Shown here one piece after another: positions 50,283 to 52,577 of a stretch of 64,000 bases of DNA. The notes beneath the pieces are model-generated. The model worked only from the letters and a program-made list of their open reading frames with translations. It was not told the DNA's origin and did no database searches. The first letter of the stretch is position 1; the number at the start of each line of letters is the position of its first letter. This DNA comes from Solibacteraceae bacterium (GTDB lineage: Bacteria; Acidobacteriota; Terriglobia; Bryobacterales; Bryobacteraceae), in the NCBI GenBank assembly GCA_026984795.1, contig JALSRK010000024.1:310001-374000 (forward strand), given 5' to 3'. A program made the position numbers and the translations under genes.

Positions 50283-50351
50283 GACACTATTATTCCCCAA
50301 CGCCCGCCGGAATGATAGCCGCGGGCGGGACGCCGGCGTGCGCCCCGGACG

Positions 50352-50357
50352 TATAAT
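50352..50357 (+). promoter_or_regulatory. Perfect -10 (TATAAT), leaderless Gfo/Idh transcript
   Basis: TATAAT ends 6 nt before the ATG at 50364, so the predicted transcription start coincides with the first base of the start codon. No Shine-Dalgarno exists. Confidence 0.55.
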
Positions 50358-50363
50358 CCGGCT

Positions 50364-51539
50364 ATGCCGGAGATCGAGAAGCGACGCACGTTCCTGAAGG
50401 CGGCTTCGGGCCTGCTGATCCTGAAGCCCGCCACTGTTTTCGGCTCCCAGGCCAACTCGGCCCTGTCGGTGGGCATCATCGGCTGCGGGGGCCGCGGCAA
50501 TTACGTCGGCGGAATGTTTCAGGAGTACGCCGGCGCCCGGATCACGGCCCTGCACGATCCTTTCGAAGACCGTTTGGAGGCCATCCGCAAGAAGCTGAAC
50601 CTCTCTGCGCCCCGGACGTTCACGGGGCTGGAAGGCTACCGGAAGCTCGTCGAGACCGGCGTCGACGCGGTCATCGTGACGAGTCCGCCTTACTGGCATC
50701 CAGTGCACACGCGGGCGGCTATCGACGTGGGCAAGCATGTTTACGTGGCCAAGCCGATCGCTGTGGACGTCGCCGGCTGCCTGGACTTCCTCGCTGCCGG
50801 GCGGGTGGCGGCGCGGAAGAACCTCAGCCTGCTGGTGGACTTCCAGACCCGCGCCCAGCCGGCCTTCCAGCAGGCGGCCGAGCGCGTGCACCGGGGCGAC
50901 ATCGGCGAACTGGTATTCGGCCACGTCTACTACCACGCGGGCCGCCTGCGGCCGAAGGGGCTGCCGCAGCTTTCGCCCGAGCAGAACCGGCTGCGCAACT
51001 GGGTCTTCGACAAGGCGCTCTCGGGCGACATCATCGTCGAGCAGAACATCCACGTCCTCGATGTGGCCAACTGGTACGCGAACACCCACCCGGTGCGCGC
51101 CGTGGGGACCGGGGGCCGCAAGGCCCGCACCGACGTCGGCGACTGCTGGGACCACTTCATCGTCCAGTTCGACTATCCGGATGAGGTGAAGGTCGATTTC
51201 TCTTCGGGCCAGTTCATCAAGGGCTACCACGACCTCTGCATGCGCTTCTACGGCTCGCTGGGCACGGTGGATTCGCACTACCGCGGCGTCGTCCGCATCA
51301 CCGGGGACCATCCCTGGGAGGGCGAGCAGGGCAACACGATGCACATCGGCACCTCGACGAACGTGAAGAACTTCGCCGCCGCCGTGCGGGCGGGCAAGCC
51401 GGTGAACAACGCCGCGGTCAGCGTCGAGTCCAACCTGACCGCCGTGCTGGGCCGCATGGCCGCTTACAAGCGCGAGCCGGTCACCTGGGACGAGATGCTG
51501 GCTTCGAACGAGCGCCTGGACGCACACCTGGCCCTGTAA
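50364..51539 (+). CDS. Tat-exported Gfo/Idh/MocA oxidoreductase
   Basis: 391 residues. The leader KRRTFLKAASGLLILKPATVFG is a Tat signal. The Rossmann domain begins SVGIIGCGGRGNYVGGMFQ, with VIVTSPPYWH and AKPIAVDVAGCLDF, where the catalytic Lys of the usual EKP motif is kept but Glu is Ala. The C-terminal domain ends with FAAAVRAGKPVNNAAVSVESN. Such exported members act on sugars in the periplasm with a pre-bound cofactor. The substrate is unknown. The ROK kinase gene follows. Confidence 0.9.
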   Translation: MPEIEKRRTFLKAASGLLILKPATVFGSQANSALSVGIIGCGGRGNYVGGMFQEYAGARITALHDPFEDRLEAIRKKLNLSAPRTFTGLEGYRKLVETGVDAVIVTSPPYWHPVHTRAAIDVGKHVYVAKPIAVDVAGCLDFLAAGRVAARKNLSLLVDFQTRAQPAFQQAAERVHRGDIGELVFGHVYYHAGRLRPKGLPQLSPEQNRLRNWVFDKALSGDIIVEQNIHVLDVANWYANTHPVRAVGTGGRKARTDVGDCWDHFIVQFDYPDEVKVDFSSGQFIKGYHDLCMRFYGSLGTVDSHYRGVVRITGDHPWEGEQGNTMHIGTSTNVKNFAAAVRAGKPVNNAAVSVESNLTAVLGRMAAYKREPVTWDEMLASNERLDAHLAL

Positions 51540-51594
51540 CGTTACCGCTTCGCCGCCGCGTCCCCGCTCCCGGAGCCGCCCGCCGGGCGTTGGG

Positions 51595-51600
51595 TATACT
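51595..51600 (+). promoter_or_regulatory. Candidate -10 (TATACT), leaderless ROK transcript
   Basis: TATACT ends 8 nt before the ATG at 51609. The transcript would begin at or within two bases of the start codon. Confidence 0.5.
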
Positions 51601-51608
51601 AGCCGGTT

Positions 51609-52577
51609 ATGCTGGCGTTAGGATTGGACATCGGCGGGACCCGGATCAAGGCCGGGCTGGTGGACGAAAAGGGCAAGATGGTGCGCCAGGAGACGGCCGA
51701 AACACCGATCGTACCGGCTGAGTTCCGCGCCGCGGTGGGCAGCCTGATCGAGGCGCTGGGGCCGGAAGCGGCCGGCGTGGCGGGAGCCGGCGTCGCCTGC
51801 AAGGGCGTAGTCGATTACGAGACGACGCGCATCAACGTGCTGCCCGGGCTGCTGCGGCCGCTCGAAGGCGAATACCTGCGGGACCTGATCCCCATCCGCG
51901 GGCCCGTTTACGCCGACAACGACGCCAAGGTGGCGATGGTCGGCGAGATGGTCTGGGGCGCCGCCCGGGGCAAGCGCGACGCCATCATGCTGACGCTGGG
52001 CACCGGCGTCGGCGGGGCCGTCGTCGCCAACGGCAAGATGGTCCGGGGCGTGGCCGGCGTGGCAGGTCACCTGGGCCACGTGACGACGATGACCGACGGG
52101 CCGATCTGCATCTGCGGCAACCACGGCTGCATCGAGAGCCTCTTCTCGGCCGACGCCATCGAGAGCGAAGCTTTCCGCATCGTCCACAACGGCTGCGTCT
52201 CTTCGCTCACTGACGAGTTCCGCGACCGCCCCGGCGAGGTTACCTGCAAGGACGTCTTCGAGCACGCCGCCCGCGGCGACAAGGCGGCGCGCACCATCAT
52301 CGACCGCGCCATCCGCCATCTGGGAGCCGCCATCGCCGGGCTGCTGCACGTGCTGGATCCAGAAGTGGTCATCCTGGGCGGCCAGATCGTCGAGGCCGGC
52401 GAGGCGCTGCTCGATCCCCTCCGCCGCGAGGTCTGGTGGCGGAGCGAGGGTCTGCTGCAGCGCCACGTGCCGATCGTCGTCCAGCAGGTGAAGGACCGCA
52501 CCGGCATCACCGGCGGCGCGGCCCTGGTCTTCTCGGAGTTGGGCCGCCGCGAATGGCAGGCGACCGAGGCGGAGTGA
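51609..52577 (+). CDS. ROK-family sugar kinase (glucokinase-like)
   Basis: 322 residues. The ATP-binding start LALGLDIGGTRIKAGLVDEKG, the substrate region AGHLGH and the ROK zinc motif CICGNHGCIESL are all present, with LTLGTGVGGAVVANGKMVRG. It phosphorylates glucose or a similar hexose; some ROK proteins are repressors, but no HTH precedes the kinase fold here. It follows the Gfo/Idh gene by 70 bp with its own promoter. Confidence 0.92.
   Translation: MLALGLDIGGTRIKAGLVDEKGKMVRQETAETPIVPAEFRAAVGSLIEALGPEAAGVAGAGVACKGVVDYETTRINVLPGLLRPLEGEYLRDLIPIRGPVYADNDAKVAMVGEMVWGAARGKRDAIMLTLGTGVGGAVVANGKMVRGVAGVAGHLGHVTTMTDGPICICGNHGCIESLFSADAIESEAFRIVHNGCVSSLTDEFRDRPGEVTCKDVFEHAARGDKAARTIIDRAIRHLGAAIAGLLHVLDPEVVILGGQIVEAGEALLDPLRREVWWRSEGLLQRHVPIVVQQVKDRTGITGGAALVFSELGRREWQATEAE

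What the first reader, a model, noticed from the sequence alone, without database searches (positions are those of the whole stretch)
50340..51612. Frequent -10 boxes 4-12 nt before start codons: leaderless transcripts
TATAAT at 50352 (ATG 50364), TATACT at 51595 (ATG 51609), TAGGAT at 14118 (GTG 14131), TACAAT at 22714 (ATG 22729), TATATT at 5181 (ATG 5196), TAGACT at 35294 (ATG 35307), TAGGAT at 16984 (ATG 17002) and TACAAT at 31992 (GTG 32005) all predict transcripts beginning within a few bases of the start codon, and these genes lack Shine-Dalgarno sites. By contrast, genes inside operons often have one. Leaderless initiation is known in some phyla; a rule for this lineage would affect start-site annotation.
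Basis: partly seen in the sequence, partly recalled or inferred. Interest (0 to 1): 0.55.

Follow-up and report, generated by a model that had tools for sequence, protein, structure and literature searches.

The report
Leaderless gene starts in an acidobacterium
In this bacterium about one gene in seven has its promoter so close to the start codon that the message probably begins at the gene itself; this arrangement was already predicted for this phylum in 2011, so it is real but ordinary.

Summary
All eight hexamers are at the stated places. In 1.18 Mb of this genome (22.6%, 947 genes called without any upstream signal), a TAnAAT motif centred 13 nt before the start codon is learned from the data. 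It is carried by about 19% of genes that start a transcription unit, 3% of genes inside operons, and 15% overall. It is not found in shuffled sequence, at other start codons of the same genes, on the opposite strand or in E. coli. TG one base upstream of the hexamer, outside what was selected, is enriched five-fold (24 of 100 against 5%), which marks the hexamers as extended -10 promoter elements. Their position puts the transcript start at, or a few bases before, the start codon: leaderless mRNAs. The lack of Shine-Dalgarno sites vanishes as evidence once the space taken by the box is allowed for. Zheng et al. 2011 already reported this signal in 3 of 3 Acidobacteria genomes (average 13.3% of genes). 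No transcript ends were available, so leaderless transcription is inferred.

The parts
50352..50357 (+). TATAAT, -10 box at -12 from ATG 50364; predicted transcript start at or next to the A of ATG
   Evidence: posterior 0.99
50364..51539 (+). Gfo/Idh/MocA oxidoreductase; N-terminus MPEIEKRRTFLKAASG looks like a twin-arginine signal (recalled motif); this ATG is the first possible start of its frame
51595..51600 (+). TATACT, -10 box at -14 from ATG 51609
   Evidence: posterior 0.98
51609..52577 (+). ROK family protein; domain begins at residue 4; first possible start of its frame
5181..5186 (+). TATATT, box at -15 from ATG 5196 (metallophosphoesterase); an upstream ATG 5157 exists in the same frame
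   Evidence: (posterior 0.96)
14118..14123 (+). TAGGAT, box at -13 from GTG 14131 (ThiS-MoaE fusion)
   Evidence: (posterior 0.59, SD 0.28)
22714..22719 (+). TACAAT, box at -15 from ATG 22729 (PurS)
   Evidence: (posterior 0.96)
35294..35299 (+). TAGACT, box at -13 from ATG 35307 (response regulator with sigma-54 interaction domain)
   Evidence: (posterior 0.93)
16984..16989 (+). TAGGAT at -18 from ATG 17002 (indole-3-glycerol phosphate synthase); SD-like GAGG lies in between; doubtful as leaderless
31992..31997 (+). TACAAT; -13 from GTG 32005, but it overlaps ATG 31996, which the gene finder prefers; unresolved
13976..13981 (-).
   Evidence: (posterior 0.84)
30028..30033 (-).
   Evidence: (posterior 0.76)
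43546..43551 (-). TACGCT, first T at -17 before ATG 43534 of the sigma-54 activator 42227-43534; weak, as another match in the same stretch may carry part of the posterior
   Evidence: (posterior 0.85)
50289..50294 (-). AATAAT, at -12 before ATG 50282 of gene 49602-50282, back to back with 50364 (81 bp between the starts)
   Evidence: (posterior 0.60)

Best explanation
The hexamers are -10 elements of ordinary housekeeping-type promoters, often with an extended TG and mostly without a recognisable -35. They sit 12-15 nt before the start codon, so RNA polymerase starts at the start codon or 0-3 nt before it. The mRNA is then leaderless, and a ribosome must begin on the 5'-terminal start codon without a Shine-Dalgarno pairing. 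Shown: motif, position, strand, near-restriction to unit-starting genes, extended TG. Inferred: that transcription starts there, that no longer leader from another promoter dominates, and that translation begins on the 5' end.
For: Mixture fit on 947 genes with starts fixed by coding potential: TA motif T79 A72 n A54 A47 T93, peak at -13/-14, weight 0.32 in unit-starting genes and 0.05 in operon genes. Of eight decoy seeds (joint-start runs) three converge on the identical motif and four more on it shifted by one base. 6 of 6 dinucleotide shuffles, the -65..-36 region, the reverse complement and 945 alternative start codons give no such motif. With fixed motifs the weights are 0.26 (C24, n=241) and 0.13 (other contigs, n=357) against a maximum of 0.044 in 40 shuffles each, and 0.000 in E. 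coli (n=50). TGn before the box 24 of 100 against 5% background, P=1e-10, outside the selected hexamer. A weak -35 excess at spacers 16-18 (4, 3, 5 against 1.6 each elsewhere), nearly all in boxes without TG (11 of 76; with TG 1 of 24). Weight 0.000 in 136 genes overlapping a co-directional upstream gene, highest next to short divergent gaps. Starts backed by Pfam N-termini.
Against: No RNA 5' ends. Other promoters upstream may give leadered mRNAs as well. The SD shortage near the box disappears after masking. The arrangement at 50364 is not conserved: read by eye, 2 of 23 relatives' loci have a strict TANNNT at -17..-10, and several have a -10-like box near -24 with GGAG or GAGG behind it. 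In two relatives the box weight also exceeds all shuffles in operon genes (G093 0.235, n=21; G004 0.152, n=23). The fraction differs between contigs (0.24 on C24, 0.13 on C38) for reasons I did not find.
Confidence: 0.87

Rival explanations
1. The boxes are real -10 elements, but the true start codons lie downstream, so the mRNAs have ordinary leaders and the apparent position comes from start calls that are too long.
For: Start calls are computed, not measured; differ for two of the eight genes.
Against: Pfam domains begin at residues 2, 4, 5, 9 and 11 of five of the eight cited proteins, leaving little or no room for a downstream start. A peak at -13 is not expected from random errors.
Confidence: 0.06
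2. The motif is a translation signal or an AT-rich unstructured stretch that helps ribosome loading, not a promoter.
For: It lies where ribosome-binding signals lie, and A+T rises near starts in high-GC genomes (recalled). In two small samples of relatives operon genes carry it too.
Against: In the own genome it is nearly absent from genes inside operons, which need translation signals too (0.05 against 0.32). Composition-preserving shuffles do not give it. TG of the extended -10 and a weak -35 at the promoter spacing accompany it.
Confidence: 0.05
3. The eight cases are chance matches picked by eye in an AT-poor genome.
Against: 10 of 38 window genes against 2.5 in control windows; 78 against 32.6 expected over 598 genes; 40 of 40 shuffles lower.
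Confidence: 0.02

Closest known systems
TA-led (leaderless) genes of Zheng et al. 2011, PMC3160421
   Same: TANNNT about 12 bp before the start in a minority of genes; Acidobacteria 3 of 3 genomes, 9.7-19.4% of genes (Table 2, passage read). Here 14.8% by a similar mixture.
   Different: They say the middle three bases carry little information in high-GC groups and describe the TG peak in several low-GC genomes. Here, at 66% GC, A is favoured at the fourth and fifth positions and TGn is enriched five-fold.
Mycobacterial leaderless transcripts (M. smegmatis, PMC6448022, passages read)
   Same: 24% of transcripts leaderless by mapped starts, (T)ANNNT -10, no conserved -35.
   Different: That is measured; here only sequence is available. 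Different phylum.
Extended -10 promoters of E. coli sigma-70 (recalled)
   Same: TGn-TATAAT, with the -35 dispensable.
   Different: There the promoters feed leadered, SD-bearing mRNAs; in the E. coli control the box weight at -17..-10 is 0.000.

Membership tests
Leaderless (TA-led) genes | TANNNT-type -10 box about 12 bp before the start codon, above shuffled sequence | tested here: met
Leaderless (TA-led) genes | Found at starts of transcription units, not inside operons | tested here: met
   own genome: 19.1% of 598 against 3.4% of 239; 0 in 136 overlapping genes. Not met in the small samples of G093 and G004
Leaderless (TA-led) genes | No Shine-Dalgarno site | tested here: inconclusive
   8 of 100 against 207 of 589 raw, but 5 of 100 against 7.9 after masking the box
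Leaderless (TA-led) genes | Mapped transcript start within 5 nt of the start codon | not testable with these tools
   no RNA data for this genome
Sigma-70-type extended -10 promoter | TG one base upstream of the -10 hexamer | tested here: met
   24 of 100 against 5%
Sigma-70-type -35/-10 promoter | TTGACA-like -35 at 16-18 bp spacing | tested here: inconclusive
   weak excess, 12 against about 5; no information peak in the aligned set

The most novel reading that the evidence does not exclude
In this order of Acidobacteriota a promoter of about 20 bp (extended -10, no -35, no leader) lets transcription units begin in gaps of 20-50 bp between co-directional genes and lets divergent genes sit 31-100 bp apart, so distance-based operon calls fail. 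The trait is patchy in the phylum: present in this order and class and in one other family sampled, absent from two further families with intact SD use.
Probability: 0.4. Interest if true: 0.35.

Novelty: new member of a known kind. Interest (0 to 1): 0.2.

Why it matters
Start-site annotation and operon prediction in Acidobacteriota improve if gene finders model a -10 box at -13 as well as an SD site. The set also gives genes on which to test leaderless translation in a phylum for which my searches found no transcript-start map. It does not change the general picture of leaderless genes.

Tried and rejected
SD depletion as an independent sign of leaderlessness was rejected after masking, although the raw contrast looked strong. 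Plain EM motif search found only the SD motif, and the script then failed; the three-part mixture replaced it. An excess of divergent pairs with both genes leaderless was not found: gap up to 60 bp, 2 of 16 pairs; gap 61-100 bp, 4 of 23; close to what independence gives by my arithmetic. Conservation of the box at 50364 in orthologs was not found (read by eye). Jointly refined starts raise the TA weight, but I did not use them for counts because refinement favours the motif. The gap dependence may be partly an effect of wrong starts in long gaps. Dropped rows: 19 genes without an upstream neighbour ('edge') are left out of the unit-starting, mid-gap and operon classes. The pattern counts keep only genes with 60 nt upstream. 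The survey holds 13 stretch sets of relatives, E. coli and the own genome; a 17-kb stretch of G083 was fetched and not analysed. The C24 and other-contig weights use motifs learned on both, so they are not held-out tests; the relatives and E. coli are.

Full report
Where it is. The window is bases 310001-374000 of contig C24 of a 5.23-Mb, 77-contig genome, 64-69% G+C. The nearest named relatives of the gene at 50364 are Bryobacterales / Acidobacteria / Terriglobia metagenome genomes at 55-56% identity. No 16S rRNA gene was found in this genome's assembly.

The sites. All eight hexamers are present, with 6-12 nt between hexamer and start codon. For 50364 and 51609 the start codon is the first possible one in the frame. 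Their products are a Gfo/Idh/MocA oxidoreductase and a ROK protein whose domain begins at residue 4. PurS (22729), ThiS-MoaE (14131), a response regulator (35307) and indole-3-glycerol phosphate synthase (17002) also have domains that begin at residues 2-11. The sites at 17002 (box at -18, with GAGG between) and 32005 (ATG 31996 preferred) are doubtful.

I called genes with a coding-potential model that uses no upstream signal: 357 genes on C24 and 947 genes in 1,181,120 bases of the genome. Over 598 genes that are divergent from, or more than 50 bp behind, their upstream neighbour, TANNNT starts at -16..-10 78 times against 32.6 expected from -55..-21. On C24 it is 42 against 10.6, and on the other contigs 36 against 22.0. 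In 239 genes within 20 bp of a co-directional neighbour it is 7 against 2.6.

Motif. A mixture of SD, TA and no signal, fitted to the 30 bases upstream of fixed starts, gives T79 A72 n A54 A47 T93 peaking at -13/-14, and GGAG peaking at -12. Weights (TA, SD) are 0.32 and 0.33 for unit-starting genes and 0.05 and 0.74 for operon genes. Of eight other seeds, run with joint starts, AATATT, TAATAT and TTGACA reach the same motif with the same likelihood; ATATTA, TTAATA and ATTATA reach it shifted by one base; CTATAA reaches it shifted the other way; CAATCA reaches another motif of lower likelihood. Six of six shuffles, the region -65..-36, the reverse complement and 945 alternative start codons give no such motif. 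Counting only -17..-10, the summed posterior is 114.5 of 598 (19.1%), 17.5 of 91 mid-gap genes (19.2%), 8.1 of 239 operon genes (3.4%) and 140.1 of 947 in all (14.8%).

Promoter character. Among 100 unit-starting or mid-gap genes with TANNNT at -17..-10 (chosen by that pattern alone), TG stands at -15/-14 of the promoter in 24, against a background of 5.0% (P=1e-10); at ten other offsets it stands in 0-11. A TTGACA-like element is weakly in excess at spacers 16-18 and nearly confined to boxes without TG (11 of 76 against 1 of 24). An aligned set of 88 shows no -35 information peak. Distances of the first T from the start codon peak at -13 to -15. With the usual 12 bases from that T to the transcript start (recalled), this gives leaders of about 0-3 nt.

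Gap dependence. The TA weight is 0.000 in 136 genes overlapping a co-directional upstream gene, 0.21 and 0.24 at gaps of 21-30 and 31-50 bp, and 0.07 above 200 bp. For divergent genes it is 0.73 (n=8) at 31-50 bp, 0.41 at 51-100, 0.34 at 101-200 and 0.10 above 200. Miscalled starts in long gaps could cause part of this.

Results against. The raw SD contrast (8 of 100 against 207 of 589) falls to 5 against 7.9 +- 2.6 when an equal stretch is masked in control genes, with 343 of 2000 runs as low. So SD absence adds nothing. Read by eye, the box at 50364 is kept as a strict TANNNT at -17..-10 in only 2 of 23 relatives' loci. Contigs differ without explanation: 0.24 on C24, 0.13 on C38 and C6. In G093 and G004 operon genes also score above all shuffles.

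Relatives. With the motifs fixed, the TA weight in unit-starting genes exceeds all 40 shuffles in G008 (same family, 0.27, n=115), G028 (same order, 0.17, n=104), G032 (same order, 0.25, n=48), G084 and G073 (same class, 0.17 and 0.22, n=43 and 54) and G093 (same phylum, 0.18, n=46). It is within the shuffles or at their edge in G007 (0.090), G035 (0.160), G050 (0.075) and G004 (0.145 against a maximum of 0.144, n=28). It is at noise in G066 and G088 (one family, 0.014 and 0.000), G041 (0.000) and E. coli (0.000, n=50). Ten of ten 16S loci that match the whole model in the phylum search (loci L105-L114) hold GGATCACCTCCTTT at the 3' end, so the anti-SD is intact there.

What is known. Zheng et al. 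2011 (PMC3160421; outline, passages and section 7 read) report TA-like signals about 12 bp before the start, read as leaderless genes, in 3 of 3 Acidobacteria genomes at 9.7-19.4% of genes. PMC10783764 (passages) lists 45% for Acidobacteriia and 61% for Holophagae in its column of SD use. PMC6448022 (passages) gives the measured mycobacterial parallel. Searches for leaderless plus Acidobacteria or Acidobacteriota, and for start-site maps in Acidobacteria, showed no transcript-start map in this library; most subscription papers are not held. The GeneMarkS-2 paper (DOI recalled) is not held.

Verdict. The signal is real and correctly read, for a minority of genes, as leaderless promoters. The sites are new members of a kind already described for this phylum. 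The modest additions are the extended TG at high G+C, the short-gap preference and the patchiness across families.

Noticed in passing
G000:C24:411141-411173 (outside the window, in L023): Two divergent genes with only 31 bp between their start codons, each with a -10-like box (CATAAT and TATACT) on opposite strands about 5 bp apart; neither promoter has room for a -35 outside the other gene.
   Followed up: partly
window 31970-32005: Divergent genes with 25 bp between called starts; TACATT on the minus strand and TACAAT on the plus strand form a near-inverted pair close to the start codons, so both starts are uncertain.
   Followed up: partly
L026, L027, L039, L040 (orthologs of 50364): Instead of a leaderless start, a -10-like box lies near -24 with GGAG or GAGG in the short leader (by eye); a minor bump of boxes at -28..-25 is also seen in the own genome.
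   Followed up: partly
G000 contigs C24 against C38 and C6: The share of TA-led unit-starting genes is 0.24 on C24 but 0.13 on C38 and C6; no cause found.
   Followed up: no
window 14131-14844: One reading frame encodes a ThiS (MoaD-like) domain fused to MoaE.
   Followed up: no
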